Assembly (NCBI RefSeq): GCF_003428625.2
Contig: NZ_QVQT02000003.1
Span: 124,001 to 188,000 of the forward strand
Length of the DNA: 64,000 bases
Reading direction: 5' to 3'
DNA from: Paracidobacterium acidisoli
GTDB lineage: Bacteria; Acidobacteriota; Terriglobia; Terriglobales; Acidobacteriaceae
In this document: in pieces, positions 2,631 to 53,760 of the stretch
Numbering within the stretch: position 1 is the stretch's first letter
Layout: every line of letters begins with the position of its first letter
Position numbers and translations under genes: made by a program
The notes under the pieces: generated by a model
Told to the model about the DNA's origin: nothing
What the model saw: only the letters and a program-made list of their open reading frames with translations
Database searches by the model: none

Positions 2631-3079
2631 GAAGCTTTTCTCCCGATGCGAAGATTGTGAGCGTCAACGGCGGAGATGAAGTTCAGCAGCCCGGCAACGA
2701 CGGCGAACTTGGTTCCGTAGTCGGCGGTGGCCGTCTGCACGGCGGTGTGGCCCAGATTGAGAAGCTGCCCGATGAAGTAGAGAAGTCCGGTACCGAGATC
2801 ACCGGCAAAACCAAGCATGTCAAGCATGTCGCCGGTATTTGGCTGGTACAGCTTTGCCTGCATGGCCAGTCCGAGGGCAAACATGGTGGTGATGGAGGTG
2901 AAGAGAAGAAGTGCGCGTATCCAGTGCCGGGTGAGCAGATGCCCCGCGCCGGGGATGAGCCAGCCGAGCAGCAAAGCTCCGTAAACAAAGCCCTGGGACT
3001 CCTTCTTTTCAGGCACCTGAACCTTTGAGACCATCCCTTTGACTATACAGGAACCCAGTACGTCAGACAGAGATTCCAT
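2627..3079 (-). CDS. TM2/DUF6677-like membrane protein
   Basis: This is a 150-residue protein. Around residues 31-60 it carries a small-membrane-protein signature, YGALLLGWLIPGAGHLLTRH followed by a helix, resembling TM2 and DUF6677 proteins. Further hydrophobic segments follow near residues 100-130. The start is uncertain: ATG at 3079, or the internal ATG that begins MVSKVQVPEKKE; neither has a well-placed ribosome binding site. It overlaps the next small membrane protein by 2 nt. No biochemical role is known for the family. Confidence 0.7.
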   Translation of the reverse strand: MESLSDVLGSCIVKGMVSKVQVPEKKESQGFVYGALLLGWLIPGAGHLLTRHWIRALLLFTSITTMFALGLAMQAKLYQPNTGDMLDMLGFAGDLGTGLLYFIGQLLNLGHTAVQTATADYGTKFAVVAGLLNFISAVDAHNLRIGRKAS

Positions 3080-3150
3080 GTATGGTTTGCAGGAATCCGG
3101 GGCGGATGGTCAGGAGGTGGCCTGTTCTCCGGTGCCGGGCTAAGGGCTTC

Positions 3151-4329
3151 TTAAATTCTCACCAGATCGCGCTGGATTCGGCCTGTCGGTGCGGCGCTGT
3201 CGGTGGTGGTGATCATGTTCAGCTCGCTGCGCACGCCGAATTCGGGCAGGTAGATGCCCGGCTCGACGGAGAAGCAGGTAAAGGGCAGGATGAGACGCTC
3301 GTCGTGGGTCTCAAGATTATCGAGATGCGCGCCGCTGCCGTGCAGTTCGGTGCCGATGTTGTGGCCGGTGCGATGCGTAAAGTATGGAGCGAAGCCGGCC
3401 TTGCGGATGACCGAGCGGGAAGCGTCGTCGGCCTGCCAGCCGGCGATGGGATGTTTCGTGGCGAAGGCTTCTGAGATTGTGCTGACGGCGGCGTCGCGGG
3501 CGTCGCGCACGGTGGTGAAGACCTGTTGTTCGCGATCAGAGGGCTCGCGGCCGACGACACCGGTCCAGGTGATGTCATACCAGATGGTGCCAGGGCGGTT
3601 TTTGCGTCCCCAGATATCGATGAGAACAAAGTCGCCTTCGCGGATGGGCCTCGCGGTTGTGGATGTGGGCTCGTAGTGCGAGTCAGAACTGTTCTGATTG
3701 ACGGAGACATTGGGGCCGTTTTCCCAGACAAGATCGGCACGGCTCATGGCTTCCTGAAGCCAGAGAACCATGTCGTACTCCGTGGGCTGAGAGCCGGCGC
3801 GGATGCGGCGCCCGATCTCGCGAAAGCCTTCGGGAAGAATTTCGTCGAGTGCTCTTTGTGCTTCGTAGTGGCTTGCGATCTGTTCCTCAGAGAGTACAGC
3901 CTGGAAGTGGCTGACGAGATCGGCGGAGGAAACGATAGTTTTACCGAAGGCGCGGAGCAACTCGATGGTTCCGGCATCAACCATGGAGACGTACATGATG
4001 GCGTTGCGCGGGGAATACTGCATCGCGATGCGGCGATAAGGAGCGAGCATAGCGCCGAGTCCTGCTTCGAGCTCCTGCCAGGAGGAGTAGACGCCTTTCG
4101 AGCCAGGAAGCATGTCGAGTCGCCCGGCTTCGATTCGATGGACGAGCTTGCGGGGCTCACCTGTGGCGGGGATGACGTAATACCAGCGCCGCGTGACATG
4201 CGCGTCTTCGGGCAGGCCGAGGATGGCATAAGCCAGCGGGTCGCGGTGGTGGTGGTCATAGAAGAGCCAGGCGTCGAGCTGCTGCTCGCGGAGGGCGGAC
4301 TGGATCGCGTCGAGGTTCACGGTGGCCAC
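3151..4329 (-). CDS. M24 family metallopeptidase (aminopeptidase P / Xaa-Pro dipeptidase type)
   Basis: The 392-residue protein has a creatinase-like N-terminal domain and a pita-bread C-terminal domain. The five dinuclear-metal ligands are recognisable in order: Asp in VLIDIWG, Asp in WYDITWTG, His in HRTGHNIGTELHG, Glu in SVEPGIYLPEFG and Glu in VRSELN. It is therefore predicted to be an active metallopeptidase cleaving Xaa-Pro bonds in the cytoplasm; no signal peptide is visible. The start is GTG at 4329. Length fits the family. It could instead belong to a creatinase-like M24 subgroup with another substrate. Confidence 0.85.
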   Translation of the reverse strand: MATVNLDAIQSALREQQLDAWLFYDHHHRDPLAYAILGLPEDAHVTRRWYYVIPATGEPRKLVHRIEAGRLDMLPGSKGVYSSWQELEAGLGAMLAPYRRIAMQYSPRNAIMYVSMVDAGTIELLRAFGKTIVSSADLVSHFQAVLSEEQIASHYEAQRALDEILPEGFREIGRRIRAGSQPTEYDMVLWLQEAMSRADLVWENGPNVSVNQNSSDSHYEPTSTTARPIREGDFVLIDIWGRKNRPGTIWYDITWTGVVGREPSDREQQVFTTVRDARDAAVSTISEAFATKHPIAGWQADDASRSVIRKAGFAPYFTHRTGHNIGTELHGSGAHLDNLETHDERLILPFTCFSVEPGIYLPEFGVRSELNMITTTDSAAPTGRIQRDLVRI

Positions 4330-4434
4330 CGAGGATGAGTGTAACGCAGCTGGAGGGGGGCCGGCGGAGAACTGTGCAGACCGGATACCGGACGGGCTCG
4401 GCTACAATCGGTTCATACAGGCGCAGGAGCGACG

Positions 4435-4710
4435 ATGCAGCGAATCGCTGTGCAGATACTGAAGGGCCTGCTGATGGCCGCTGTTCTGCTTTATGCGGGA
4501 GACTGGGTAGTCTTTCACCTTCGAGCGATGCGGGGTATGGCGATGGGCTCGATTGAGGTTGATCAGTTTCTGGCGACCCCGCTGAAGGGCCACAAGGAAG
4601 AGTTCGACTACATGGGCAGCGCGGATGTGGCCTGCGCGCGCGCATTGTTTCCGCACGACGGAGCGCCGGCCTGCTGGTGGGTCGAACGGCATAAAACGCA
4701 CTGGGAATAG
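4435..4710 (+). CDS. Small single-pass membrane protein, conserved-hypothetical type
   Basis: This 91-residue protein begins MQRIAVQILKGLLMAAVLLY, one hydrophobic helix near the N-terminus. A soluble tail follows with two Cys residues (DVACARALFP and PACWWVERH). A good ribosome binding site (CAGGAG) lies 5-10 nt upstream of the ATG, and a TACAAT hexamer about 35 nt upstream could be its -10 box. It is divergent from the M24 peptidase gene. No function is recognised; the tail is probably periplasmic. Confidence 0.7.
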   Translation: MQRIAVQILKGLLMAAVLLYAGDWVVFHLRAMRGMAMGSIEVDQFLATPLKGHKEEFDYMGSADVACARALFPHDGAPACWWVERHKTHWE

Positions 4711-4780
4711 AACGGATGCGATGTCTATATGCGTGCCGATTCCTGAGTAACTGCGAACTATCCCGGCACGATGAAGAAAC

Positions 4781-6367
4781 CTACTTTTTCTCGTGATACT
4801 CCTGCTCGGTGTTGATCGCCCATAGCGCATCCTTGTCGAGATTTCCGACGAGGATGTTGTCCACGGCGGTCATCGCCGTGAGCATAGAGTGATCCTGATT
4901 GTTGTACTTGTGCATGCCGTTGCGGCCGACGAGGAAGAGGTTTTCAAAGCCATCCATGTAGCGGACGATTTCGTCGAAGCGGTGATACGTGCCGAAATAA
5001 GCGGGGTAGGTTTTCGGCACGCGCACAACGTGTGCGTCGAGTACATCGGAGGATTTCAGAATGCCGATCTTTTCAATTTCAGCGATGGCGAACTTTGCGA
5101 TCTTATCGTCGGGCATCTTCCACAGATCATCAGAGTCGTAGCAAAAATATTCGAGACCGATCCAGATTTTTGAGGGATCGGCAACCATGTATGGGCTCCA
5201 GTTATTGAAGATCTGCAGGCGGCCGACGAGAACATCGGGTTCCTGGATATAAATCCAGGTGTCTTTAAGAAGCGAACCGTCGGGCTCGGTCACTGTAAGC
5301 CGGTTGACGAGCAGGCCAACGGTGATGAAGTCGCGGTAGACGAGGCCGTCGGCGACTTCGCGGACCGAAGCGGGAACTTCTGTGCCCGGATTGGGGAAGT
5401 GCAGGCTGCGCAGCAGCTCGCGGACGGGCATGGTGGAGAAGACGTAATCGGCTTCGATGGTGCGGGTTTCTCCATGCTCGTTGATGGCCTCAACGGAAGC
5501 GATGCGATTGCCGGCGACATGGAGCCTGGTGACCCGCCAGCCGAGACAGACCTCGCCTCCCCTGTTCGTAACCAGATCGGCGACATGTTCCCAGAGCTGG
5601 CCTGGTCCATATTTCGGGTACAGGAACTTCTCGATGAGAGAGGTTTCTGTATCCTTTTGCGCAATATCCCCGGATTTCTTCGCGCGGAAAGTCTTCTTCA
5701 GAAAGTGAGCGATGGCCGTGCGCAGGGAAAGTCCCTTGATGCGCTGCGCACCCCACTCGGCGCTGATGTGGTCGCAGGGAACTCCCCAGACCTTTTCGGT
5801 ATAAGACTTGAAGAAGGTGAGATAGAGTTCGCGGCCGAAACGATTGATGAGAAAGTCTTCCAGAGTCTTTTCTTCGCGGCGCGGAAAGAGATGGGCTCGC
5901 AGATAGCTGAAGCCGATGCGTACCATGCGTCCCAGTCCAAGCTGGCGAATGGTCTGGCCATTCAGCGCGAGCGGGTAATCGAAAAAGCTGCGCAGGAAAT
6001 AGATACGGCTGCGACGGGGCCGCACCAGCATGACCAGATCAGAGTCAGGTGATGGGGAGCCGTTTTGCGAAATGGTTCGCTCACGGCTCTGATAGCGGAT
6101 GGAGTGCTCTTCGCTGTCATTCTCGCTGGAAGCGATGGGCAGCAGAGAGGTCCACCAGTCCATGACGCGATCGGACTTTGAGAAGAAGCGGTGGCCTCCG
6201 ATATCCATGCGGTTGCCGCAGTACTGGATGGTGCAGGAGATACCGCCAATGCGCTGCGTGGCTTCGAAAACGATGGGCTGAACGTCAGAGCGGCGCAGAA
6301 ATTCGAGGGCTGCGGTGAGGCCGGCAGGGCCGGCACCGATGATGACAGCGGTTTTGCCGGTGCTCAC
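4781..6367 (-). CDS. FAD-dependent oxidoreductase, UDP-galactopyranose mutase / amine oxidase-like
   Basis: With the GTG start at 6367 the protein has 528 residues and opens directly with the dinucleotide-binding motif [20 protein letters not shown]. The frame stays open to an ATG at 6484, but the extra 39 residues do not look conserved, and a GGAG sits upstream of the GTG. Other signs are [16 protein letters not shown], a central region resembling UDP-galactopyranose mutases, and a C-terminal FAD-contact region ([18 protein letters not shown]). It is probably a cytoplasmic flavoenzyme acting on a nucleotide sugar, carotenoid or similar substrate; the substrate cannot be told from sequence. 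The gene lies 249 nt downstream of the glycosyltransferase gene on the same strand. Confidence 0.8.
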
Positions 6368-6616
6368 TGGGCGGCTCCGGCGTTGCCGTGCAGGCAGAGA
6401 TGATACGGCGAAAGTGGTGCGCCGATGAGAAACAGACAATATTGCATATAAAACTATGTTCGAGCCAGCGGACCATCCAGGCAACCCGCATGCCGGCAGA
6501 GCGATCTGTATGGGGCTGGAGAGCGGCGGCCTCTTTCCTTGTTATTGCAACTATAGACGGAGCGGGGGCAAACAAGTCTGCCGACAGAGAAAGATCCCGT
6601 TTCAGACAACAAGCCG

Positions 6617-7816
6617 TTAGATGGCTGAGACGGCAGAGCCTCCTCGCCGTTCTTCGGCGATGGCGTGCATGAGGCCACCCGGCATCAGGCGATAAACTTC
6701 TCCGCGCCAAAGGATTTTGTTCGATCCATAACTCGCCATCCAGTAACAGAATCCGAGAAAGTCGCGCAGAGGATAAAGCAGGATGGTCCGCAACAGGTGT
6801 CGCTCTTCCACTACCGAGGCACCCACGATGGCGGCCAGGAGCATACGGATGACCAGGCTATAGAGCAACAGGGCGGAAGCGAGAAATGGATGATGGAGGG
6901 CCAGCGCCGCGACGAAAGACAACAGGCCAAAGGGCACCGAGAAGGTAAGTGCGGTGCCGAAGTGGCCTTTGGGGCGCGAGAAGCGGGTGGATTTCATCCA
7001 GCGGATCTGATGCTTCTGGGAGGCCGTAAAACTCAGGTTGAGGATGACATGATCGATGACGTGGGTGGAGAGAACGACGGTGTGCCCATGGGCGGCGATT
7101 TGATTGCCGAGCACGAAATCATCGGCGCAGTAAGGGCCGAGGATACGGAAGCCGCCAATCTCATCAACGCATGGACGACGCACGGCCATAGTAGGGCCGA
7201 GGGTGAACTGCATGCCTTCCATCATGTCCGCAACGAGGACGCCGGAAGTCATCTCGATGGACATACCGGCAGCTTCGAGCTTCGACCAGATGGTGCCTTT
7301 ATCGGCGACTCCGCGATAAAGGCAGGTGACAGCTCCGACATTGGCATCTGCGAAGGGAGCAACGACTGAGCGGATATAGTCCGGTGTAACACGGACGTCG
7401 CTGTCGCTGATGATGAACAGATCGTGGCGGGCTGCTGCAGCCATGCGCTCCAGTGAAGAGACTTTGGCGTTAATGTAGACAGGCTCCTCCGCGATGAGGA
7501 ACTGGACAGGGATCTGCGGATAGCGGGAGGCTACCTGACGGGCGATGGCCAGACCGGTATCCGTGGCGCTGCGGGCGCAGAAGAGGATTTCGTAAGAGGG
7601 ATAATCCTGGAGAAAGAAGCTCTCAAGATGGATGTCGAGATTTGGCTCTGCCCCGTGAAGCGGCTTAAGCAGGCTGACCGGCTGCTGAAAGGTCTGCGAT
7701 TCCGCTCTGTGTCTTTTGCGGCGAATGAAGCGTATGGCTCCGGCGATCACGAGGCCGGTGAAGACCGAGGAGGTGAGCAGGCCGAAGAGCCCGAGGCCGA
7801 GAAGAGCTTTCAACAT
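6617..7816 (-). CDS. hpnI: Ceramide glucosyltransferase-like (GT21) enzyme, HpnI type
   Basis: This 399-residue membrane glycosyltransferase has an N-terminal helix, then a GT2-fold domain. It shows DSDVRV (DxD metal site), CADDFVLG (second conserved Asp region) and HQIRWMKSTRFSRP, the (Q/R)xxRW signature of GT21 enzymes. Two or three hydrophobic helices follow near the C-terminus. This layout matches ceramide glucosyltransferases and the hopanoid-associated enzyme HpnI, which adds N-acetylglucosamine to bacteriohopanetetrol. No other hopanoid genes are in the window, so the hopanoid assignment rests on family resemblance only. It lies 118 nt downstream of hspR. Confidence 0.75.
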   Translation of the reverse strand: MLKALLGLGLFGLLTSSVFTGLVIAGAIRFIRRKRHRAESQTFQQPVSLLKPLHGAEPNLDIHLESFFLQDYPSYEILFCARSATDTGLAIARQVASRYPQIPVQFLIAEEPVYINAKVSSLERMAAAARHDLFIISDSDVRVTPDYIRSVVAPFADANVGAVTCLYRGVADKGTIWSKLEAAGMSIEMTSGVLVADMMEGMQFTLGPTMAVRRPCVDEIGGFRILGPYCADDFVLGNQIAAHGHTVVLSTHVIDHVILNLSFTASQKHQIRWMKSTRFSRPKGHFGTALTFSVPFGLLSFVAALALHHPFLASALLLYSLVIRMLLAAIVGASVVEERHLLRTILLYPLRDFLGFCYWMASYGSNKILWRGEVYRLMPGGLMHAIAEERRGGSAVSAI

Positions 7817-7934
7817 AAGAAATGGTCTGCCGCGCAGGGCTGCTGCAGCAGAAAATACCCTCTTCAGATTACAGGAGGTGTGATGACTCGTGCAGATAAA
7901 GAGAGGGACGTTATCGCGGTGTCATATCAGGACG

Positions 7935-8330
7935 TTAACGTCTGGCCTTCGCTGCCGGAACGTCAACGGGACGGCGCAGCGGAACCATAGCCGCGCCCTG
8001 CGGAGCGGCCTGCTGCATGCGTGAGAGCATCTCGGTACGAACGTAGTGTATGAAGTCCTGCATCTGCCGGTTCATCTCCTCCATGCGCTCGCGCATCTGC
8101 AGAATGATGGCGATGCCGGCAATGTTGACTCCGAGATCGCGTGCGAGATTGAGGATGAATTCAAGGCGCTCCAGGTCCTCATCGGTATAAAGGCGGGTAT
8201 TGCCTTCGGTGCGCGACGGCTTCAGCAGGCCTTCACGCTCGTAAAGACGCAGGGTCTGCGGATGGATGTCGTACATCTCGGCCACTGCCGAGATCATGTA
8301 TGCGCCTTTGGATTTGCGTTTGGTCGGCAT
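7935..8330 (-). CDS. hspR: HspR-like MerR family heat-shock repressor
   Basis: The 131-residue protein begins with a MerR-type winged helix: YMISAVAEMYDIHPQTLRLY, then EREGLLKPSRTEGNTRLYTD. A coiled dimerisation helix and an alanine/proline-rich tail follow. HspR proteins bind inverted repeats named HAIR (CTTGAGT-N7-ACTCAAG) upstream of dnaK or clpB, with DnaK as co-repressor in actinobacteria. It is the last gene of the minus-strand run fpg-dnaJ-unknown-hspR, 9 nt after the unknown gene. A HAIR-like site lies upstream of dnaK at 13250. Confidence 0.88.
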   Translation of the reverse strand: MPTKRKSKGAYMISAVAEMYDIHPQTLRLYEREGLLKPSRTEGNTRLYTDEDLERLEFILNLARDLGVNIAGIAIILQMRERMEEMNRQMQDFIHYVRTEMLSRMQQAAPQGAAMVPLRRPVDVPAAKARR

Positions 8331-8339
8331 AGGATCAGG

Positions 8340-8804
8340 TCAGCTGGTAAATAATTTTGCCCGGGCGTCAGTTGCTTCGATCTGTCCGAAGGCGATGCGG
8401 CGAGGCAACAGGTTACGAAGTTGTCCGCCGATGATGCGATAAGGAATGACGGCTTCGGTACAGTATCCGTTCTTCTGCTCGATATGAAGCAGCACTGCGT
8501 CGCGGTAACCTTCCTTCGAGGGCTGGCTGAGCGCGATGTTCGCCGCCATTACCGCAGCCTTGATGGAACCGCGGCGGGCCTCTTTCACGAGATATTCGCC
8601 GAGCAGATGATAGAGGCGCTCCGGATCGCGGGGAAGGCGTGGAATATCGAGTTTGGCGCGCTCTACCTGGCGATCGTTATCCATGAAGAAGCCGAACGGA
8701 CCCAGCTCGCCGTAACGGCGGAGTACGACGCGGGCAAAGGACATGGCGGCATTCAGCAGCTCATTGGCGACTTTCTGGTCCTGCGTCTGTTCGGTCACTG
8801 CCAT
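8340..8804 (-). CDS. Conserved unknown protein between dnaJ and hspR
   Basis: This is a 154-residue soluble protein with no family I recognise. The ATG at 8804 is chosen because GGGAG stands 9 nt upstream; the frame continues upstream into dnaJ but that part is an out-of-frame shadow of dnaJ. The sequence contains GPFGFFMDND, a segment rich in charged helix residues (RDPERLYHLLGEYLVKEARR) and a C-terminal part with YRIIGGQLRNLLPRRIAFGQ. It lies 31 nt after dnaJ and 9 nt before hspR. That placement suggests a heat-shock-linked function, but this is inference only. Confidence 0.75.
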   Translation of the reverse strand: MAVTEQTQDQKVANELLNAAMSFARVVLRRYGELGPFGFFMDNDRQVERAKLDIPRLPRDPERLYHLLGEYLVKEARRGSIKAAVMAANIALSQPSKEGYRDAVLLHIEQKNGYCTEAVIPYRIIGGQLRNLLPRRIAFGQIEATDARAKLFTS

Positions 8805-8835
8805 TCCCTGCTGCTCCCACAATTCATAAGAGACT

Positions 8836-10062
8836 TTACACCTTTGCCCACATGGACTCGCGGGGATCGTCAGGATTGAGTTTGGCGAATTCGCGGAGAA
8901 TCTCCTTGGATCGCTCGTCGCGCACCTGCGGCACCGTGATTTCGACGGTGACAATCTGATCGCCACGTGCGCCCTCGCGTGTTGCCGAGGCAACGCCGCG
9001 CTCCCGCATGCGCAGTTTCTGGCCGCTCTGCGTGCCGGGCGGAATCCTGAGCTGCGTGCGTCCATCGATGGTAGGAACTTCAATCTTTGCGCCCAGAGCA
9101 GCTTCAGCCACGGTAACCGGCACAATAATCCGAATGTCGTCACCTTCGCGGGAGAAGACCGGATGCGAGCCGGTACGGATAATGAGGTAGAGATCACCAG
9201 CCGGGCCGCTGTTCGTGCCGGCATTGCCGCGGCCGGCAAGACGGATACGCTGGCCGTCGCGCGTGCCGGCCTTGACGCGAAATTCGATGGTCTCGGTACG
9301 GTGCAGCGTGCCCTGGCCGTAACAGGTGGGGCAGGCATTCTGCACCTTGCCCGTGCCACCGCAGCGCGGGCACTGAATGTTGAACTTCATACGGCCGCCC
9401 ATCTGCGTGACGGTTCCGGAGCCGTGGCATTCAGGGCAGGTCTGCGCGCCGCCGGTAGAGGTTTTGCCTTTGCAGGTAGGGCACAGCTCCTGGCGCTGAA
9501 TCTGCAGACGGGCAGTACCTCCGCGAATAGCGGTCCAGAAATCAACGGTGGCCTGGTACTCGAGATCAGTGCCAGGCTGCGGGCCGGTCTGCTGGGGTGC
9601 GCCGCCCTGATTGAAGATGCCGGAAAAGATGTCCTTGAAGCCGCCCCACCCGGCGGTACCGGCGCTGCCAGCGCTGCCGGTCTGCTGGCGCTGTGTTCCG
9701 GCACCGGTGGCGAAGTCGGAGAAGTCGAATCCGCCAAAGTCAAACGGAACTTCCTGGCGGGAGGATGTGCCGCCGGTTCCGGGCGTGTATCCGGAGCGGG
9801 CAGCAGCCTCGGCAGCGGCTGGATCGATCTGATCGGAGTAAAAGCCGAACTGATCGTAAACCTTGCGTTTCTTCTCGTCGCTGAGGATGTCGTTGGCTTC
9901 GGAAATTTCCTTGAACTTCTCTTCGGCCTTTTTATCGCCGGGGTTTACATCGGGATGATACTTGCGCGCGAGCTTGCGGAAGGCTTTGCGAATCTCATCC
10001 GCGGTCGCCGTCTTTTTGATGCCAAGCGTGGCGTAATAATCTTTGTGCTGCGTTTGCGCCAT
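8836..10062 (-). CDS. dnaJ: Chaperone protein DnaJ
   Basis: The 408-residue protein is a complete type I DnaJ. The J domain covers residues 1-70 and carries HPD in RKYHPDVNPGD. A Gly/Ser/Gln-rich linker follows (about 85-165). The zinc-finger domain has four CxxCxGxG-type repeats (CPTCKGKT, CPECHGSG, CPRCGGTG, CPTCYGQG), and a C-terminal substrate-binding domain closes the protein. It delivers substrates to DnaK and stimulates its ATPase. The gene sits 33 nt after fpg/nei and leads into hspR, so chaperone and repressor are probably co-transcribed. No grpE is present in the window. The first zinc repeat ends in KT rather than the usual glycine. Confidence 0.95.
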   Translation of the reverse strand: MAQTQHKDYYATLGIKKTATADEIRKAFRKLARKYHPDVNPGDKKAEEKFKEISEANDILSDEKKRKVYDQFGFYSDQIDPAAAEAAARSGYTPGTGGTSSRQEVPFDFGGFDFSDFATGAGTQRQQTGSAGSAGTAGWGGFKDIFSGIFNQGGAPQQTGPQPGTDLEYQATVDFWTAIRGGTARLQIQRQELCPTCKGKTSTGGAQTCPECHGSGTVTQMGGRMKFNIQCPRCGGTGKVQNACPTCYGQGTLHRTETIEFRVKAGTRDGQRIRLAGRGNAGTNSGPAGDLYLIIRTGSHPVFSREGDDIRIIVPVTVAEAALGAKIEVPTIDGRTQLRIPPGTQSGQKLRMRERGVASATREGARGDQIVTVEITVPQVRDERSKEILREFAKLNPDDPRESMWAKV

Positions 10063-10095
10063 GTGTTTCTGCTCTCTTGTTCCTGCTGAGCGGGT

Positions 10096-10890
10096 TTAGT
10101 CTTTCTGGCACTCCGGGCACCAGTACACGGTGCGTCCACCCATATCGGCCTTCTTTATTGTTGCACCGCAGACGAAGCATGGCTTGCCGGCCCGGCGGTA
10201 AGCGTAGTGTACTTCGTGGTCCTCAGCGGGCCCGCGTTTATGCGGGCGATGCTTCGACCGGGTAGTCACGATGCGGCGATCGACCATCGCCTCGCGCATC
10301 AGAGTCTTCGCTTCTTTCCAGATGCCGCGCAGGGCTGTTGTTTCCGTCTGACCGCCAGGGCGCCAGGGATTGATCTTTGCGCGGAATAAAAGCTCCGCCC
10401 GAAAGATATTACCGATGCCGCCGAAGATGGACTGATCCATAAGCAAAAGGCCGACAGGGGCAGTCCGTTCTTTGATCCACGCGAAGGCCGGCTCCGGATC
10501 GGAGCCAGGCCGCAGAGGATCGGGGCCAATGCGGGCCATGAGCTTCTGCCACTTCTTTTCGTCGAAGAGTGAACAGTCCATAGCGCCGCGCAGCTCCATC
10601 CAGTCGCGAGTGGTCCACATGCGCAGCCGAAGCGCGCCCTTTTCTTCCGGCATGGGCATCCGGCCATCCCGGAAATCGCCATACATGCCGAGATGGATGT
10701 GCAGGATCAGATCGCGTCCGAAGAAATAACCAAGGTGCTTGCCATACGCTTCGACAGCCTGCAGCTTTCTGCCGTACAGAAGGGCTGCATCGGGGAAGGC
10801 GCCGTTGGGCGAATCCACCTGCACGCGTTTGCCCGCAAAGGCGGCTGCATGACGGTCGGCGAAGCGGTGGATTTCATTTCCCTCAGGCAT
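10096..10890 (-). CDS. Fpg/Nei family DNA glycosylase-lyase
   Basis: This 264-residue protein begins MPEGNEIHR; Pro2 and Glu3 are the catalytic residues of the family, exposed after Met removal. A helix-two-turn-helix region (MDQSIFGGIGNIFRAELLFR) and a C-terminal zinc finger (CFVCGATIKK, then YWCPEC) are present. It excises oxidised bases and cuts the strand at the resulting abasic site. The MPEGNE start and sequence fit the endonuclease VIII (Nei/Nei2) branch better than MutM. The gene lies 21 nt after the 56-residue gene and 33 nt before dnaJ, linking DNA repair with the heat-shock run. Confidence 0.88.
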   Translation of the reverse strand: MPEGNEIHRFADRHAAAFAGKRVQVDSPNGAFPDAALLYGRKLQAVEAYGKHLGYFFGRDLILHIHLGMYGDFRDGRMPMPEEKGALRLRMWTTRDWMELRGAMDCSLFDEKKWQKLMARIGPDPLRPGSDPEPAFAWIKERTAPVGLLLMDQSIFGGIGNIFRAELLFRAKINPWRPGGQTETTALRGIWKEAKTLMREAMVDRRIVTTRSKHRPHKRGPAEDHEVHYAYRRAGKPCFVCGATIKKADMGGRTVYWCPECQKD

Positions 10891-10911
10891 TCGTTTAGTT
10901 CCGGATCAGCC

Positions 10912-11082
10912 TTAATTCCAGACCATTCGGGCCTCGACGGGCTCCATACGCCAGAAGAGGTCGGGCTCCATTTTCTGCATCTGCGCGACGAAGCGCTCGG
11001 CTTCCTCACGGGTGTTGAACATCACTTTGTTGGTGACCGCGCCAGCCCGTAACTGCTCGCATTTCCATAATGTGTCGGTCAT
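10912..11082 (-). CDS. 56-residue conserved small protein
   Basis: The ATG at 11082 is preceded by AGAGGAAA at ideal spacing. The product begins MTDTLWKCEQLRAGAVTNKV and contains a helix REEAERFVAQMQKMEPDLFW. It is soluble and has one Cys. The larger overlapping frame starting at 11313 lacks a ribosome binding site and runs through the dnaK terminator, so it is not used. It stands 21 nt before the fpg/nei gene and is probably the first gene of that operon. Function unknown. Confidence 0.7.
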   Translation of the reverse strand: MTDTLWKCEQLRAGAVTNKVMFNTREEAERFVAQMQKMEPDLFWRMEPVEARMVWN

Positions 11083-11180
11083 CTGATTTCCTCTGACTGC
11101 CTTTCCGAAACTGATTTCTTCTGCCTGGGGTACGCAAAAAACTGCCGTTCCGGTTCTGCCTTCGTTTACATCCTGCTGAA

Positions 11181-11208
11181 AACCGGGGCGCTCCTTTCGG
11201 AACGCCCC
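11181..11208 (-). terminator. Terminator downstream of dnaK
   Basis: On the minus strand GGGGCGTTCC pairs with GGAGCGCCCC around a GAAA tetraloop (one mismatch) and is followed by GGTTTTC. It lies about 60 nt after the dnaK stop and separates dnaK from the small-protein/fpg/dnaJ/hspR run. The T tract is short, so termination may be partial. Confidence 0.65.
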
Positions 11209-11269
11209 ATACCAAATACCAGACTCAGTGAGCGGGCCCGCCTCGGATCTTCCGGGTGCAGGCACCGCC

Positions 11270-13192
<1,923 letters not shown>

Positions 13193-47123: not shown

Positions 47124-47864
47124 TTACAAGCTCTCGAAATCAGACACTGGAGTATGCGCAACAGAGGCATCGATAGCTTTATTGCCGGGCCGGACAGCAA
47201 GACAGACGCTGATACCAGCAGCGGAGGCTGCGTCGAGCTCGGCGGGCGCATCGGAGAGAAACAGAATCTGCTCCGGACTCGTGTTTAAGGTGGAAGCGAT
47301 GTTCCGGTAGCTTGCGCTTTGTGTCTTGGGGCCGACGGCGGTGTCGAAGTACGCTTCGATCCATGGGGTGAGATCGCCTGCCTGCGTGTGGCGGAAGATC
47401 AGCTTCTGTGCGAGAACGCTGCCGGAAGAATAGATCGCAATGCCGCGCTTTTGCTCGCGCCACCGCTCGAAAGCGAGGGGGACATCGGGAAAGACAATGC
47501 TGTGGAGATCCCCGGCGGCGTAACCCGCTTCCCAGATGCGGCACTGGATGGATTTGAGAGCAGGAGATTTGCGGTCCTGATTCATGAGCCAGAGCAGATA
47601 TGCATGCGCCGTTTCCAGTTGCAGCGATACGGATGACAGGGCACCGGAAACAACCGGGACTGCAGCAAAAGTGGAAAGGTCGCGCACATTTTCTGCCCGC
47701 AGCAGATCGAGATCGTTATGTGTCGCCGGATCATCGACATGCTCACTGAGAAAGCTCAGCAGACGGGCGCGAGCATAAGGGAAGAGTACGTCATAGACGA
47801 AAGAAACAGGGGTGGTCGTTCCTTCAATGTCGAGAAGGACGACCGAGATCGCGGCCTGGTTCAT
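47124..47864 (-). CDS. mtnC: Acireductone synthase (enolase-phosphatase E1)
   Basis: The 246-residue HAD-superfamily enzyme starts with VVLLDIEGTTTPVSFVYDVL, where the first Asp is the phosphoryl acceptor and Glu replaces the usual second Asp, as in MtnC. IYSSGSVLAQKLIF is motif II, and SDAPAELDAASAAGI is motif III/IV. It enolises and dephosphorylates 2,3-diketo-5-methylthiopentyl-1-phosphate to acireductone in methionine salvage. Its start overlaps the mtnD stop by 4 nt (ATGA), so it is coupled to mtnD. Confidence 0.93.
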   Translation of the reverse strand: MNQAAISVVLLDIEGTTTPVSFVYDVLFPYARARLLSFLSEHVDDPATHNDLDLLRAENVRDLSTFAAVPVVSGALSSVSLQLETAHAYLLWLMNQDRKSPALKSIQCRIWEAGYAAGDLHSIVFPDVPLAFERWREQKRGIAIYSSGSVLAQKLIFRHTQAGDLTPWIEAYFDTAVGPKTQSASYRNIASTLNTSPEQILFLSDAPAELDAASAAGISVCLAVRPGNKAIDASVAHTPVSDFESL

Positions 47865-48439
47865 GCGGGAACATCGAAGGCGCCGGACTGGCGCGGTCCG
47901 ATATACGCCGGGCCAAAGCAGACGGGCTCATAGCGGCTGTCCACACCACTTGATGTGTAATACGGCGTCCAGCCCGTCTTGTCCTGGAAGAGGCGGATGG
48001 CGCGGATATTGTGATCGCTGCAAAGGTTGAACCAGTGGTGCGTGTCGCGGGGCACGCAGATAAGATCGCCTTCGGTAACCTCGATAGAAAAAACAGAACG
48101 GCCGTGCGGATGAATGTGAAAGAGGCCGCGGCCCCGCAGGGTGATGCGGACTTCATCTTCGTTGTGCCAGTGCTCGCGGTTAAACCTCGCAAGCATGGCG
48201 GCAAGGCCCTCCGTCTCCGGAGTGATGTCGATGATGTCGGCGGTGGTATAGCCGCCCTTCTCTTTCAGCGCATGGATTTCCGGAGCATAAGCGGCGAGAA
48301 GGTCATCAGCAGGAGCATCGGCGGAGATACGGCCGGTCTGCCAGTGCTGGTATTCGATGCCGACTTCGGCGAGATACGCACGGATCTTGCTTTCTTCGCG
48401 GAGAACGATTTTTTCATCGGGAATTTCGACGACGGCCAT
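47861..48439 (-). CDS. mtnD: Acireductone dioxygenase
   Basis: This 192-residue cupin enzyme carries the metal ligands in order: HWHNEDEVR (two His and one Glu) and THHWFNLCSD (last His). It cleaves acireductone with O2. The Fe2+ form yields the methionine precursor 2-keto-4-methylthiobutyrate plus formate; the Ni2+ form gives an off-pathway product with CO. Length and N-terminus are normal. It lies 20 nt after mtnB and overlaps mtnC, so the order is mtnB-mtnD-mtnC on the minus strand. Confidence 0.93.
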   Translation of the reverse strand: MAVVEIPDEKIVLREESKIRAYLAEVGIEYQHWQTGRISADAPADDLLAAYAPEIHALKEKGGYTTADIIDITPETEGLAAMLARFNREHWHNEDEVRITLRGRGLFHIHPHGRSVFSIEVTEGDLICVPRDTHHWFNLCSDHNIRAIRLFQDKTGWTPYYTSSGVDSRYEPVCFGPAYIGPRQSGAFDVPA

Positions 48440-48459
48440 GACGGGTCCTCCTGCAGTAG

Positions 48460-49098
48460 CTACTGTGCCTGCGCAAAGCGGCCGCGCAGCATGTCGGTGG
48501 TGCCAGCGACTTCCAGCAGAAATTCGATGATTTCGACGTGGCGCTGTGCTTCGGCGACGTCGGCTCCCCAGGTGTAGAGGCCGTGTCCCCGCAGGAGCAC
48601 ACCATGTATATCAGGATACTCGCGAAGAAGCGTTTCGAGCTCTGCCGATAACTGAGTATAGTTCTGCGAATTTTCGAGGACCGGCAGCCATTCGGAATGT
48701 TCGTGCGTGGTGACGCCGGAGAGTCCTTTGAGCATTTCGTAGCCGGCAATCGTGATGCCTTTGGCGCCTGCGTAGAAGCCGGAGAGGACCGTTGCCCAGG
48801 GAGAATGCACGTGCTGAACGGATCCGGCGCTGCGCTGGCGCACGATGACGGCGTGGAGAGCGGCCTCGGCAGATGGTCGTCCCTCGCCCTGCAGAACGCG
48901 GCACTGTTCATCGATATGCACGAAGCTCTGCGGGGTAAGATTGCCTTTGTTCTGACCGCTGGAGGTGATGAGCAGACGGAGTGGGTCGGAAGCAAGCGTG
49001 GCGCTGAGATTGCCGGAGGTGCCCTGCAGCCATCCCCGGCCGGCAAGCGCCGCTCCTGCCTGTGTAAGTTGTCTGACCGCTTCGGCTGCTTCCAGCAT
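48460..49098 (-). CDS. mtnB: Methylthioribulose-1-phosphate dehydratase
   Basis: The 212-residue class II aldolase-fold protein shows LQGTSGNLSA near the N-terminus, a zinc site in VQHVHSPWATVLSGF and RGHGLYTWGADVAEAQRHVE. It dehydrates 5-methylthioribulose-1-phosphate in methionine salvage. It is the first gene of the mtnBDC run. A strong hairpin lies 34 nt upstream (49132-49152). No mtnN/mtnP or mtnA is present in the window, so the early steps are encoded elsewhere. Confidence 0.92.
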   Translation of the reverse strand: MLEAAEAVRQLTQAGAALAGRGWLQGTSGNLSATLASDPLRLLITSSGQNKGNLTPQSFVHIDEQCRVLQGEGRPSAEAALHAVIVRQRSAGSVQHVHSPWATVLSGFYAGAKGITIAGYEMLKGLSGVTTHEHSEWLPVLENSQNYTQLSAELETLLREYPDIHGVLLRGHGLYTWGADVAEAQRHVEIIEFLLEVAGTTDMLRGRFAQAQ

Positions 49099-49319: not shown

Positions 49320-50882
49320 ATGAGCCACTATCGCTGGTTTCGCGCAGGCGACCTGAATGCGTTTTTTGCGCTGATGTTCGATAACGTGGCAAATCTGGTG
49401 ATTCTGGCCAGCATTCTGATCGGTGCGTTCCAGTTTCCGCGTGAGATCGTGCTGTACAGGATGGTTCCGGGCACGGCGGTGGGAGTGCTCATTGGCGATC
49501 TGATCTATGCATGGATGGCTGGACGGCTGGCGCGCAGGACGGGCCGCGACGATGTGACGGCCATGCCGTTGGGGCTGAATGCGCCGAGCATCTTCGGCAT
49601 GTCATTTGCGGTGATCGGACCGGCCTATCTGCTGACGCACGATGCGATGCTGGCCTGGAAGATCGGTATGGCCGTTACAGTGCTGGCGGGAGTCTTTAAA
49701 ATTGCGTTGTCATTTGCCGGAAACCGCGTGCGATCGATTGTGCCGAGGGCCGCGCTGCTTGGGTCGATTGGCGGGGCCGGGCTGGCGCTGATCGGGGTGC
49801 TGCCCCTGCTGAAGGTCTTTGCCGATCCGGTTCCGGGCATGCTGGCGCTGAGCATTCTGCTGGTAACGCTGGTGGCCCGGATGCGCCTGCCGTGGAGGCT
49901 GCCAGGCGCGCTGATCTCGGCGCTTGCGGGGATCGCAGCGTTTTACCTGTTGCGGGAGATTCACCTGGGAAGTCCTCTCCTGACGGGAGCGGGACCGGTT
50001 TCCATGGCATTGCATCCGGCATTTCCCTGGCCGTCGTTTGCATTCCTGGGCGGTCTCTCGAAGGCATGGGCATTCCTGCCGATTGCGCTGCCGTTCTCGC
50101 TGTCGACGGTGGTGGGCGGCATCGACAACACAGAAAGCGCGGCGGTTGCCGGAGATGAATATGACACGCGAGCCATTCTGCTGACGGAGGGATTCTGCAC
50201 CCTGGCCGCGGGGTTGTGCGGTGGCGTGGTGGAGAGCACGCCATATATTGGCCATCCGGCATATAAGTCGATGGGGGCGGGCGCGGGATACGCCATCCTG
50301 ACCGGTCTGTTTATTGGACTCGGCGGGATGCTGGGCTTTCTGCCGTTCTTTGTCGGCGCAATTCCGGCTTCTGCGATTGCGCCGGTGCTGGTGTACATCG
50401 GGCTGGAGGTGATTGCGCAGGCGTTCCTGGCGAGCCCAAAGCGGCATGGCGTAGCTGTGGCGATTTCGCTGCTGCCCTCGCTGGCATTTCTGGTCGTGCT
50501 GCAGGTGAATGCGGTGATTTCGGCTGTCGGTGCGCAGATAAGTCAGATTACCGGTGAGACCGGCGAGTCACTGCACGCATTGATTCTGCTGAGCAACGGA
50601 TTCATCATTACAGCGATTCTGTGGGGAGCGGCAACGGCCGAACTGATCGACCGGCGCTTCCGGCACAGCGCGTTTTATCTTGTGACAGGAGCGCTGTTCT
50701 GTCTTTTCGGCGTGATTCATTCTCCCACGGCACAGGGGACCTTTGTATTGCCATGGCAGGCGGGATCGACGCTGCCGTGGCATTTTGCTGCTGCCTATCT
50801 GCTTGCAGCCGTTGCCGCCGGCGGAGCGTGCCTTTTGAAACGGGAGACAGACGCTCCGGAAGTATTCGAGGAGGGAATCTGA
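49320..50882 (+). CDS. NCS2/AzgA-like purine-type permease
   Basis: The 520-residue protein has about 12-14 hydrophobic helices. The N-terminus (RAGDLNAFFALMFDNVANLV) and the central GGIDNTESAAVAGDEYDTRA and VESTPYIGHPAYKSMGAGAG segments resemble the AzgA branch of the nucleobase-ascorbate transporters. AAGGAG precedes the ATG. It is divergent from mtnBDC; methionine salvage starts from methylthioadenosine, which releases adenine, so an adenine or hypoxanthine transport role is attractive. The TIR-Sel1 gene starts 16 nt after its stop. Confidence 0.85.
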   Translation: MSHYRWFRAGDLNAFFALMFDNVANLVILASILIGAFQFPREIVLYRMVPGTAVGVLIGDLIYAWMAGRLARRTGRDDVTAMPLGLNAPSIFGMSFAVIGPAYLLTHDAMLAWKIGMAVTVLAGVFKIALSFAGNRVRSIVPRAALLGSIGGAGLALIGVLPLLKVFADPVPGMLALSILLVTLVARMRLPWRLPGALISALAGIAAFYLLREIHLGSPLLTGAGPVSMALHPAFPWPSFAFLGGLSKAWAFLPIALPFSLSTVVGGIDNTESAAVAGDEYDTRAILLTEGFCTLAAGLCGGVVESTPYIGHPAYKSMGAGAGYAILTGLFIGLGGMLGFLPFFVGAIPASAIAPVLVYIGLEVIAQAFLASPKRHGVAVAISLLPSLAFLVVLQVNAVISAVGAQISQITGETGESLHALILLSNGFIITAILWGAATAELIDRRFRHSAFYLVTGALFCLFGVIHSPTAQGTFVLPWQAGSTLPWHFAAAYLLAAVAAGGACLLKRETDAPEVFEEGI

Positions 50883-50898
50883 ACCGCCGCAAAGATAC

Positions 50899-51990
50899 AT
50901 GGAAGAACCGATCAGGAGCGCTGCAATCACGCCGATGAATCATGTTTTTATCAGCTATTCGAATGCCGACCGCGCGGCGGTCGATACCATCTGCTCGTTT
51001 CTGGAGAGCGTGGGAGTTCCGTGCTGGATTGCTCATCGGGATGAGCCTGCAGCGGAGTTCTATCAGACCCCGATTGTTGAGGCAATTCAGAGCGCGGTGG
51101 CCTGTGTTTTCGTTCTGACGCGCAATTCTAACCGGTCGCGCGATGTTGCCAATGAAGTGCATCTTGCTTTCCGAAGCAAGCGCATTTTGGTGCCGTTTCG
51201 ACTGGAAAAATTTCAGCTTGGCGGCGACCTGCTTTACTACCTCGATCGGGTGCAAACAATCGATGCAACGGCGGGACTTAATGAAGTAGCGCTGAGGCAG
51301 CTCGGCGACGTTCTGAAAAGGCTTATCGGAGAGGCGTCTGTACAGAAGCAGGAAGGGGACCAGGACTGGCGGGCGTGTGAGGCGGCGGCCATGCGTGGAG
51401 ATGCTGAAGCACGATACCGGCTTGCTGTTCACTACTCGGATGAGCAGAGCGAGACACTCCGCCCTGCTGAGGCTGTCAGGTGGTTTCGGGCAGCGGCCGA
51501 GCAGGGGCATGCGGAAAGCGCGTGGAAGCTCGCGCTCGCTTACCGCAGTGGAAATGGCGTGGTGCGCAGCGAGCCTGAAGCCGCTCGCTGGATACAGACT
51601 GCGGCAAAGCTGGGTTACGCCCCGGCCGAGTTCGCCTGGGGGCAGATGTTGCTGCAGGAACGCGGTGAGTCTGCGAATGCACGCGAAGCTGCAGTTTGGT
51701 TTGATCGTGCGGCGGCACAGGGAATTACGGATGCCAGGTATAACCTGGCGTTGCTCTATCTGAATGGAAGGGGCGTCGAACGGAATTACCCGCGTGCTCT
51801 GGAGGCTATGCGTGAGTGCGCCGGTGCGGGCCATGCCGGGGCTGAGTATTATCTGGCGTGGATGCTGATGCATGGATACGGCGCGCCGGCCGATCACAGC
51901 GAAGCCCTGCTGTGGGCCGAGCGGGCTGCTGGTCAGGGACACGAAATGGCACGGCGTCTGGTACGAGAGCTTGGCTCAGAAGCCCTTTGA
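50899..51990 (+). CDS. TIR domain protein with Sel1-like repeats
   Basis: In this 363-residue protein, residues about 13-145 form a TIR domain: NHVFISYSNADRAAVDTICS is the opening strand-loop, PCWIAHRDE the second and VFVLTRNSNRSRDVANEVHL the fourth, whose Glu (about residue 86) sits where TIR NAD-cleaving enzymes keep their catalytic Glu. Residues about 165-355 hold five Sel1-like helical repeats (for example AEAVRWFRAAAEQGHAESAW), a protein-binding scaffold. No signal peptide or membrane helix is seen. Bacterial TIR-Sel1 proteins may signal, or deplete NAD in phage defence. It follows the permease by 16 nt; its own ribosome binding site is weak. Confidence 0.85.
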   Translation: MEEPIRSAAITPMNHVFISYSNADRAAVDTICSFLESVGVPCWIAHRDEPAAEFYQTPIVEAIQSAVACVFVLTRNSNRSRDVANEVHLAFRSKRILVPFRLEKFQLGGDLLYYLDRVQTIDATAGLNEVALRQLGDVLKRLIGEASVQKQEGDQDWRACEAAAMRGDAEARYRLAVHYSDEQSETLRPAEAVRWFRAAAEQGHAESAWKLALAYRSGNGVVRSEPEAARWIQTAAKLGYAPAEFAWGQMLLQERGESANAREAAVWFDRAAAQGITDARYNLALLYLNGRGVERNYPRALEAMRECAGAGHAGAEYYLAWMLMHGYGAPADHSEALLWAERAAGQGHEMARRLVRELGSEAL

Positions 51991-52071
51991 AGAAGAAGCA
52001 ATATTTGTGCTTCTTCTTTGGTTTCCCGTTTGCTACACTCTCGAATCATTCGCTCCCCCGGAGAGAACGAA

Positions 52072-52635
52072 ATGGCTTCAATCTGCACGAATCCAGAGTG
52101 CGACTACACGAAACGCCACGGGGTAATTCAAAATGCTGCGCTTGAATTCTGCCCGAACTGCGGACGCCGTCTGCAAAAAGTTGCCGATGTTGCAGCGATA
52201 ACTCCGGTGTCGCGTGGCCGTCGCTTCGGAGCCTATTTCATCGATTTTTGCATCGCGTTTCTCCTGGTTCTGGTCGGGACAATCCCGATTGTGGGGCTGA
52301 TTATCACGCCGATTATTGCCCTGTACTGGCTCTTACGGGACATTAATGGCGCGAGCCCGGGCAAGTCGCTTCTTGGCTTGGCGATCGTCAGCCGCGGCGG
52401 TGGCCGATCGACGACGATGCAGCGGATTCTGCGTAATCTCCCGTTTGCCATAATGGTATTGCCACTGCTGATTCCGTACATTGGCCTGACGGATTATCCC
52501 ATTCAGCTTTTCGTCATCCTGGTTGAAGCGCTGATGGTGATTCTGACTCGCGAAAGAATCGGAGACAAGCTGGCCGGCACCATGGTCGTATCGCATGATG
52601 TAGCTCAGGCACAATACGCTCCTGTGTCGGCCTGA
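52072..52635 (+). CDS. Zinc-ribbon RDD-family membrane protein
   Basis: The ATG at 52072 follows GGAGAG by 7 nt and gives 187 residues. The N-terminus has four Cys in pairs (SICTNPECDY and EFCPNCGRRL), a zinc ribbon. Next comes an RDD domain: GRRFGAYFIDFCIAFLLVLV, helix 2, NGASPGKSLLGLAIV and a last helix pair (LFVILVEALMVILTRERIGD). RDD proteins are small membrane proteins, several linked to transport or export. TACACT about 38 nt upstream may be the -10 box. It lies 81 nt after TIR-Sel1 and converges with the M48 gene. Confidence 0.8.
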   Translation: MASICTNPECDYTKRHGVIQNAALEFCPNCGRRLQKVADVAAITPVSRGRRFGAYFIDFCIAFLLVLVGTIPIVGLIITPIIALYWLLRDINGASPGKSLLGLAIVSRGGGRSTTMQRILRNLPFAIMVLPLLIPYIGLTDYPIQLFVILVEALMVILTRERIGDKLAGTMVVSHDVAQAQYAPVSA

Positions 52636-52674
52636 AGCGTTGCAGTGGCATGGGAGCGTTCTACCAGACGGAGT

Positions 52675-53760
52675 TCAGCTGCTGAGCGTGGCGGGGCCGC
52701 TCAGCGGGTTGCCGCAATAACCGCAGAATTTCGGCAGGGGATGTGGAAGGGGACTTCCGCATCGGGGGCAACTGTCCTCGAGCGGACTCACGTCCAGTCT
52801 GGTCTGGCAGTTACTGCAGAACTGACTGCCCGGAATCACCTTTGCTCCACAATTGGGGCAGCGGCGATCCGGAAGCGCCTGATCCAGGCGGGGATAAATT
52901 CCCGTGAGGATTGTTCGGTACATATCGGACTCGCCCCACATGAGAATTTTTCTGACTCTCTGAATCGGCAGTGGATGGGAGAGATAGATTTCGCTCTGCA
53001 GCATGTTGATGATCTTGAGCACGGCCGCAACAGAATCATTGTCCAGCTCGTCGTACTCTTCGCCCTGCTCGCGCAGGGCTTCAAAATCGATATCGCCGAG
53101 CGAAACCGGCCATCCGCCCAGCTTGGCAAGAAGGCTGGCGACGATTTTGGGATCCTGCACGACAAGAAGCGCAGCGCGATCGCAGCTAAGCTCTGCCATG
53201 CGGCTCCAGTGCTGAAGGTGAGCCATGATCGGAAAGAGTGCCGCTTCTCCCGCAATTGGAATCAGTTTGGCAACCCCTGCGACGCCGAACTGAGCGATCA
53301 TGCTGGCGATGGTTTTGTTGACCATGTGACCACACTTTACGTGGCCCAGCTCGTGGCCCAAAACGCCCATAATTTCGGGCATAGTCATGGTTTCAATCAG
53401 GTCGCGCGTCACCACTACTGAGTGATGATTCATCCCCATGGAGTAGGCGTTCACGCCGCTTTCAGGGCTGATGAAGAGTTCGGGTAGTTCCGGAATAGAC
53501 AGGATCTCCGCGGCCTTGACGTAGATACGGTACAGGCTGACCGCCTGAGACGGTCCCACCCGGATGGACTGGCAGAGATGATGGAGCCGGGTCGCCTTCT
53601 CTGTGACGCCGCCCGCGATGAACTTCACGATTGCGGGGAAGACCGGTACATTCTGTAATGTTGCTGTCGCCGCCAGATCGTCGGCATGCTGAAAGGCGTC
53701 GGGGCTAAGCTGCGGAAAGCTCTTCAGATCGGACAGCGAAAGCTGAGGTTGCGTGCTCAT
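52675..53760 (-). CDS. M48-family metallopeptidase with C-terminal zinc ribbons
   Basis: With ATG 53760 (AGAGGGAAA upstream) the product has 361 residues. The zinc-protease motif HELGHVKCGH lies near residue 140, and SRMAELSCDRAALLVVQDP downstream supplies the third ligand (Glu). Unlike HtpX there are only weak hydrophobic stretches (around AQFGVAGVAKLIPIAGEAAL). The last ~60 residues hold two zinc ribbons (RRCPNCGAKV...FCSNCQTR and DSCPRCGSPL...FCGYCGNPL). Convergent with the zinc-ribbon RDD gene (40 nt apart). It could cleave membrane or signalling proteins. Confidence 0.82.
   Translation of the reverse strand: MSTQPQLSLSDLKSFPQLSPDAFQHADDLAATATLQNVPVFPAIVKFIAGGVTEKATRLHHLCQSIRVGPSQAVSLYRIYVKAAEILSIPELPELFISPESGVNAYSMGMNHHSVVVTRDLIETMTMPEIMGVLGHELGHVKCGHMVNKTIASMIAQFGVAGVAKLIPIAGEAALFPIMAHLQHWSRMAELSCDRAALLVVQDPKIVASLLAKLGGWPVSLGDIDFEALREQGEEYDELDNDSVAAVLKIINMLQSEIYLSHPLPIQRVRKILMWGESDMYRTILTGIYPRLDQALPDRRCPNCGAKVIPGSQFCSNCQTRLDVSPLEDSCPRCGSPLPHPLPKFCGYCGNPLSGPATLSS

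What the first reader, a model, noticed from the sequence alone, without database searches (positions are those of the whole stretch)
50899..53760. TIR-Sel1 gene next to two zinc-ribbon proteins (RDD membrane protein and M48 protease)
The sequence shows a TIR domain with a Glu at the expected catalytic position fused to five Sel1 repeats. Next come an RDD membrane protein and a convergent M48 protease that both carry zinc ribbons. TIR domains cleave NAD in several defence systems and Sel1 repeats bind proteins. The paired zinc ribbons suggest that the membrane protein and protease recognise the same partner. A sense-and-cleave module is inference.
Basis: partly seen in the sequence, partly recalled or inferred. 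Interest (0 to 1): 0.55.

Follow-up and report, generated by a model that had tools for sequence, protein, structure and literature searches.

The report
Lone TIR–Sel1 protein, unlinked neighbours
A bacterium carries a protein that joins a likely NAD-cutting domain to a protein-binding repeat arm; it looks like a one-gene sensor-effector, and the two genes beside it do not appear to belong to it.

Summary
The gene at 50899-51990 encodes a TIR_2 domain (Pfam 3.6e-18) and five Sel1 repeats (7.1e-26). An RDD membrane protein with an N-terminal Cys4 segment and a convergent M48 protease with a double zinc ribbon follow. The Glu (residue 74, codon 51154-51156) is present in all 39 distinct sequences aligned there; two further rows are gapped.

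The three-gene "sense-and-cleave" module is not supported. Around 16 M48 relatives there was no TIR and one RDD, 2.6 kb away and without a ribbon; around 7 RDD relatives neither TIR nor M48; around 15 TIR loci neither RDD nor M48. The 7 RDD relatives lack the Cys4 segment. An 11-bp hairpin at the TIR stop codon precedes RDD. The ribbons differ in type and position.

Best reading: a stand-alone TIR effector under a Sel1 sensor, probably a conflict/defence protein. Catalysis and defence are untested. I found no other TIR-Sel1 fusion among the TIR proteins fetched. One relative has two TIR genes and a Sel1 gene beside a GTPase conflict system, a hint that the two parts work together.

The parts
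50899..51990 (+). TIR-Sel1 gene, 363 aa from the first ATG; 351 aa from the more likely start at 50935
   Evidence: Pfam TIR_2 3.6e-18, Sel1 7.1e-26; AF2 model pLDDT 84.1; starts of homologues
50935..51366 (+). TIR domain
   Evidence: alignment A1 with 15 relatives; VIA-align Z 16.8 to SPARTA TIR-APAZ
51154..51156 (+). codon of the Glu (E74 counted from 50935) at the TIR NADase position
   Evidence: 16 of 16 rows; all 39 distinct sequences aligned there, 2 further rows gapped; aligned with a Glu of Cat1
51403..51942 (+). five Sel1 repeats of 36 residues (residues 157-336 from 50935)
   Evidence: Pfam, 5 stretches; helix pairs in the model; repeats written out
51990..52018 (+). 11-bp perfect inverted repeat with a 7-base loop at the TIR stop codon, terminator-like
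   Evidence: fold of 51960-52050 -36.5 kcal/mol, z -5.39; one of 14 such stems in 448 kb against 1 in a shuffled copy; not listed by the consensus terminator scan
52072..52635 (+). RDD membrane protein with N-terminal Cys4 segment; neighbour, probably not part of the TIR system
   Evidence: RDD 6.1e-10; Cys pattern; 7 relatives lack it and lack TIR/M48 neighbours
52675..53760 (-). M48 protease with HELGH and C-terminal double zinc ribbon; convergent neighbour, probably not part of the TIR system
   Evidence: Peptidase_M48 1.8e-21, DZR 1.1e-9; motifs; surroundings of 16 relatives
49320..50882 (+). membrane-protein-like gene ending 16 bases before the first ATG of the TIR gene (52 before the likelier start), same strand; possible co-transcription
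   Evidence: positions; no Pfam match; nearest relative lies at a contig end, so its next gene is unknown

Best explanation
The TIR-Sel1 gene is a stand-alone sensor-effector. The Sel1 solenoid binds a protein (phage product or misplaced host protein). Binding brings TIR domains together, and the assembled TIR cleaves NAD+ to nicotinamide and an ADP-ribose product, stopping growth or sending a signal. RDD and M48 are independent neighbours. Shown here by sequence or model: domains, predicted fold, Glu, both parts in one protein, no conserved three-gene neighbourhood in the loci examined. Inferred: enzyme activity, ligand, oligomerisation, defence role.
For: TIR and Sel1 families and folds. Glu in all 39 distinct sequences aligned there, 2 further rows gapped, and aligned with a Glu of Cat1, a CARF-TIR that cleaves NAD+ according to the start of the abstract of PMC12162218 in a search listing. 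TIR relatives in the phylum carry other modules: NACHT-like (L115), FGE-like (L113), TolB-like propeller (L111) (module names by eye), the usual pattern of one effector with varied partners. The better of the two relatives that the genome-contig scan found (L087) sits with a second TIR gene and a Sel1 gene beside genes matching DO-GTPase2 and GAP1-N2, parts of conflict systems in PMC7159879 (passages and section 29 read). In Avs5 a repeat region with a Sel1 motif is needed for activation and proposed as sensor (PMC12931631, passages). Patchy distribution: 12 of 396 phylum genomes match the TIR domain at 1e-6, own included.
Against: No PADLOC model matches over its length (best 36.6 bits, residues 7-93), and none of the neighbouring genes that I scanned was named as a defence family. 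[quoted passage not shown] The BB loop reads PAA where 10 of the 15 relatives read PG, and residues 36-43 of the model have pLDDT under 50. No relative of the TIR domain in plasmid records or in the viral-contig scan; one phage record has a 27.8% identical match, E 6e-11.
Confidence: 0.5

Rival explanations
1. The TIR domain is a non-catalytic scaffold: TIR and Sel1 arms assemble signalling or envelope complexes without cutting NAD+.
For: Several tested bacterial strains had TIRs without detected activity (PMC9092222 passages); BB loop lacks the common PG.
Against: Glu in all 39 distinct sequences aligned there, 2 further rows gapped; fold matches NAD-binding TIRs.
Confidence: 0.25
2. Three-gene sense-and-cleave module: RDD and M48 share a partner through zinc ribbons and act with TIR-Sel1.
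For: The three genes lie side by side and all are rare in the family: M48 2 of 120 and RDD 1 of 120 genomes, own included; in the whole-protein search of 120 no listed row but the own one reaches into the TIR domain; the TIR domain alone matches 3 of 21 relatives, own included, at 1e-5. Joint acquisition is possible.
Against: 0 TIR and 1 RDD around 16 M48 relatives; 0 TIR and 0 M48 around 7 RDD relatives; 0 RDD and 0 M48 around 15 TIR loci. Hairpin between TIR and RDD; M48 convergent; different ribbon types. An unrelated adjacent pair in the sampled 448 kb carries the two-CxxC pattern (DnaJ-like and Fpg-like, named by eye).
Confidence: 0.07
3. TIR-Sel1 works with the upstream membrane-protein-like gene (49320-50882), with which it is probably co-transcribed.
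For: Same strand, 16 or 52 bases between them.
Against: Weak: only 2 of 60 family genomes hold the gene at 1e-60, own included. In the 71% identical relative (G003) the 198 bases left on the contig hold no TIR coding sequence, so any next gene is further off than here; an ATG stands at the very contig end and that gene is unknown.
Confidence: 0.08
4. An effector that acts on eukaryotes such as soil protozoa, as some Sel1 proteins do.
For: Among the solved Sel1 structures that match the repeat arm are proteins titled as effectors of host-associated bacteria.
Against: From the likelier start MNHVFISY leads straight into the first TIR strand, leaving no room for a signal peptide; no secretion system gene was seen by eye among the window genes.
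Confidence: 0.05

Closest known systems
SpbK and other single-gene TIR defence proteins (PMC12847820, start of the abstract in a search listing; further details recalled)
   Same: one protein with a TIR domain and its sensing part in the same chain
   Different: here the partner is a Sel1 solenoid; only a trace match to the spbK model (11.1 bits, E 0.048)
SPARTA TIR-APAZ
   Same: best solved match of the TIR part (Z 16.8, rmsd 2.3-2.9 over 123-129 residues)
   Different: Sel1 repeats in place of the APAZ part; the adjacent genes are RDD and a membrane-protein-like gene
Cat1 CARF-TIR
   Same: best PDB sequence hit of the TIR profile, Glu aligned
   Different: no CARF family among the Pfam matches here
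GAP1-N2 / DO-GTPase conflict systems; L087 has TIR and Sel1 genes beside such genes (Kaur et al. 2020, PMC7159879, passages)
   Same: related TIR and Sel1 parts next to each other
   Different: parts are separate genes there; GAP1-M not found in this genome
Sel1-repeat proteins HcpC, c5321, LpnE
   Same: 36-residue helix-pair solenoid
   Different: matches cover only the repeat part of this protein

Membership tests
TIR_2 domain (PF13676) | profile score above curated cut-off | tested here: met
   66.7 bits against 28
TIR NADase | Glu at the catalytic position | tested here: met
   16 of 16 rows; all 39 distinct sequences aligned there, 2 further rows gapped
TIR NADase | NAD+ cleavage | not testable with these tools
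   needs an assay
Sel1 repeat protein (PF08238) | tandem 36-residue helix pairs above cut-off | tested here: met
   90.1 bits against 30.7, 5 stretches; model
Known PADLOC defence systems with TIR (ThsB, SAVED-TIR, Aga TIR, SpbK) | full-length match to the system's protein model | tested here: not met
   best is 36.6 bits over residues 7-93, positions 7-94 of a 404-position model
GAP1/DO-GTPase conflict system | GAP1 present in the genome | tested here: not met
   GAP1-M: 0 of 1 own genome (97% complete) at 0.01; control rings in 1 of 14. GAP1-N2 and the GTPases were not searched
Three-gene TIR/RDD/M48 module | conserved neighbourhood in relatives | tested here: not met
   distant relatives only, no orthologue of the whole set was available
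Zinc-ribbon RDD protein | ribbon profile above cut-off | tested here: not met
   best 14.7 of 22.9 bits; Cys4 pattern visible
Zinc-ribbon M48 peptidase | HExxH plus ribbon above cut-off | tested here: met
   M48 77.3 bits against 20.3, DZR 38.7 against 27.3; HELGH
Anti-phage defence | protection against phage | not testable with these tools
   needs plaque assays

The most novel reading that the evidence does not exclude
TIR-Sel1 is a fused, one-gene version of a TIR-plus-Sel1 effector set that elsewhere (L087) sits as separate genes beside a GTPase/GAP1 conflict system. The Sel1 arm has replaced the GTPase switch as the direct sensor of a phage or host protein.
Probability: 0.1. Interest if true: 0.5.

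Novelty: new member of a known kind. Interest (0 to 1): 0.25.

Why it matters
If active, it would add a Sel1 solenoid to the sensor arms that control TIR NADases in bacteria, and would give a small single-gene system in which ligand, assembly and NAD+ cleavage could be studied directly. It also shows that zinc ribbons on two neighbouring genes are weak evidence of a shared function.

Tried and rejected
Shared-partner zinc ribbons: rejected. By a two-CxxC pattern, 8 of 367 non-overlapping ORFs of at least 100 aa in 448 kb of this genome (window included) carry one, and the only adjacent pair the pattern finds, of 346 pairs, is a DnaJ-like and an Fpg-like gene (named by eye). The RDD gene does not match the pattern because its first pair is CX4C. 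The ORF picker is crude: at the TIR gene it took the longer antisense frame.

Foreign island by composition: GC of the TIR, RDD and M48 genes (0.594, 0.548, 0.576) is in the range of the flanks. No tRNA in the window. The upstream gene is also rare in the family (2 of 60), so an insertion boundary could not be drawn.

Phage or plasmid carriage: TIR domain no match in 72,556 plasmid records at 1e-5; 1 of 50,697 phage records, 27.8% identity, E 6e-11, not followed up; none in viral contigs for the window TIR, the L087 TIR or the M48 (pattern-based scans, close relatives only). The whole protein matches 259 plasmid records; the 40 listed rows begin at residue 58 or later, nearly all in the Sel1 part.

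Other TIR-Sel1 fusions: blastp of the Sel1 part (E up to 0.1) against the TIR ORFs of fetched loci found only this protein. Those loci cover a part of the places listed. Literature searches listed no paper on such a bacterial fusion. I did not check domain-architecture databases and recall that TIR-Sel1 architectures exist there.

Neighbour search by picked ORFs missed the M48 gene of one locus (L080), so I repeated it with tblastn on the DNA; the result stood. The Glu count (41 of 43 rows) held one protein twice; one search counts distinct sequences instead. Hits of two other TIRs of the own genome (L155, L156) fell below the threshold of that search and are not in the count.

RDD structure: single-sequence model poor (pLDDT 57.3), not used beyond the N-terminus. 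Papers on ribbon M48 or ribbon RDD proteins: none by two searches.

Full report
What is there. The window is G000:C9:124001-188000 of a 5.0 Mb genome. The TIR-Sel1 gene at 50899-51990 scores 3.6e-18 for TIR_2 and 7.1e-26 for Sel1, with five repeats. The AlphaFold2 model (alignment A3, four sequences; pLDDT 84.1, pTM 0.59) shows a TIR domain, a long helix and a five-repeat solenoid. In the VIA-align second look, residues 1-135 match SPARTA, RUN1 and SARM1 TIRs with Z about 15-17, and residues 137-351 match HcpC and other Sel1 proteins with Z up to 21.6 (Foldseek). The Glu at 51154-51156 is invariant in 16 of 16 aligned rows. In a wider set from fetched loci it is E in 41 of 43 rows and gapped in 2. 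One protein was counted twice there; by distinct local sequence it is E in 39 of 39, with the same 2 rows gapped. One gapped row is another TIR of the same genome and one lies at a contig edge. The residue lines up with a Glu of Cat1 in the profile match. The genome has four TIR_2 matches over the cut-off.

The neighbours. RDD (52072-52635) scores 6.1e-10. Its N-terminal CTNPEC...CPNC is a Cys4 pattern, but no ribbon family passes its cut-off. M48 (52675-53760, minus) has HELGH and a C-terminal double ribbon, DZR 1.1e-9. The two ribbons therefore differ in type and in end.

Do the three genes belong together? In 120 genomes of the family (own included) the whole TIR-Sel1 query hits 35, but every listed row except the own one starts at residue 144 or later, that is, in or just before the Sel1 part. 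The TIR domain alone hits 3 of 21 relatives, own included, at 1e-5. M48 hits 2 of 120 and RDD 1 of 120, own included. In the phylum the TIR domain hits 12 of 396 (1e-6) or 39 of 396 with the profile A1 (1e-12); M48 hits 42 of 396 (1e-25); RDD hits 8 of 297 (1e-6); all counts include the own genome. I fetched 16 M48 neighbourhoods: 15 of the 41 other genomes, and G062 (most about 7 kb on each side, less at contig ends). tblastn with the window proteins found no TIR there and one RDD (L073, 2.6 kb from M48, no CxxC). Around the 7 other RDD hits there was neither TIR nor M48, and none of the 7 RDD proteins shows the Cys4 segment. Around 15 TIR loci (13 from this phylum, plus L087 and L088) there was neither RDD nor M48. 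The set is thus not a conserved neighbourhood among the relatives examined. Against this reading: these are distant relatives, no other genome of the genus was drawn, no orthologue of TIR-Sel1 or of the Cys4 RDD was found, and three rare genes side by side could still be a joint, recent gain.

Transcription. An 11-bp perfect stem with a 7-base loop starts at the last base of the TIR stop codon (51990-52018). The 91 bases around it fold at -36.5 kcal/mol, z -5.39, 0 of 200 shuffles as good. Stems of at least 11 pairs number 14 in 448 kb, against 1 in a block-shuffled copy. The consensus scan did not list it, and its T-run is short. I read it as a possible terminator that parts TIR from RDD. Upstream, a membrane-protein-like gene without a Pfam match ends 16 bases before the first ATG of the TIR gene (52 before the likelier one). 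Its 71% identical relative in G003 has 198 bases left on its contig with no TIR coding sequence in them; an ATG stands at the contig end, so its next gene is unknown.

What it most likely does. Relatives of this TIR are joined to many different partners, the pattern of an effector with exchangeable sensors. The strongest contextual hint is L087 (a Marinilabiliaceae bin): two TIR genes and a Sel1 gene in a row, divergent from genes matching DO-GTPase2 and GAP1-N2. These are parts of the GTPase-centred conflict systems of PMC7159879, of which I read passages and section 29. In the window TIR and Sel1 are one protein. This is one case only, and GAP1-M is not found in the own genome. In Avs5 a repeat region that includes a Sel1 motif is needed for activation and proposed as the sensor (PMC12931631, passages). 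I therefore favour a Sel1 sensor controlling a TIR NADase, confidence 0.5. Catalysis, ligand and defence remain untested. Cautions: the Glu is common in TIRs (PMC7075850 passages), strains with TIRs of no detected activity are listed in PMC9092222 (passages), and the BB loop here lacks the PG found in 10 of 15 relatives.

Verdict. An attractive but not unusual kind of TIR effector, a new member of a known kind; the three-gene module is not supported.

Noticed in passing
L188 (G000:C14:160000-168000), 2984-4513 + and 4523-8001 +: Another TIR of the same genome is fused to DUF4062 and followed directly by an nSTAND1 gene. DUF4062 is described as a TIR-like NADase family in an anti-phage system in PMC13174449 (abstract read), so this is a better defence candidate than the finding.
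   Followed up: partly
L189 (G000:C10:64000-73000), 4130-5461 + and 5481-5978 -: A TIR gene with a stretch that looks membrane-spanning (by eye) lies convergent with a DUF4231/SLATT gene (7.2e-27 for DUF4231), a TIR plus predicted pore pair.
   Followed up: partly
L190 (G000:C9:332000-341000), 2901-4577 -: The fourth TIR protein of the genome matches the PADLOC candidate PDC-S66 (201 bits) and ThsB models (best 120 bits) over its TIR part.
   Followed up: partly
L111 (G404:C30:5500-24500), 3923-12884 -: Four TIR genes in tandem; three continue into what looks like a TolB-like beta-propeller after a hydrophobic stretch (by eye), the fourth is shorter.
   Followed up: partly
L087, 2652-8949: Two TIR genes and a Sel1 gene with a Cys-rich start next to DO-GTPase2 and GAP1-N2 genes.
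   Followed up: partly
L071, 6225-8920: The M48 relative with zinc ribbons lies one ORF away from an ion channel (Ion_trans 1e-34) that ends in two CxxC pairs; its ribbon match is below cut-off (DUF7575 17.4 of 28.5 bits).
   Followed up: no
window 47124-49098, - strand: Methionine salvage genes mtnC and mtnB (NCBIfam above cut-off for both), with a gene between them that no NCBIfam model named, point away from the unrecognised gene at 49320.
   Followed up: no
window 50608-51942, - strand: A 444-codon open frame lies antisense to the TIR-Sel1 gene and the end of the upstream gene; not searched for relatives.
   Followed up: no
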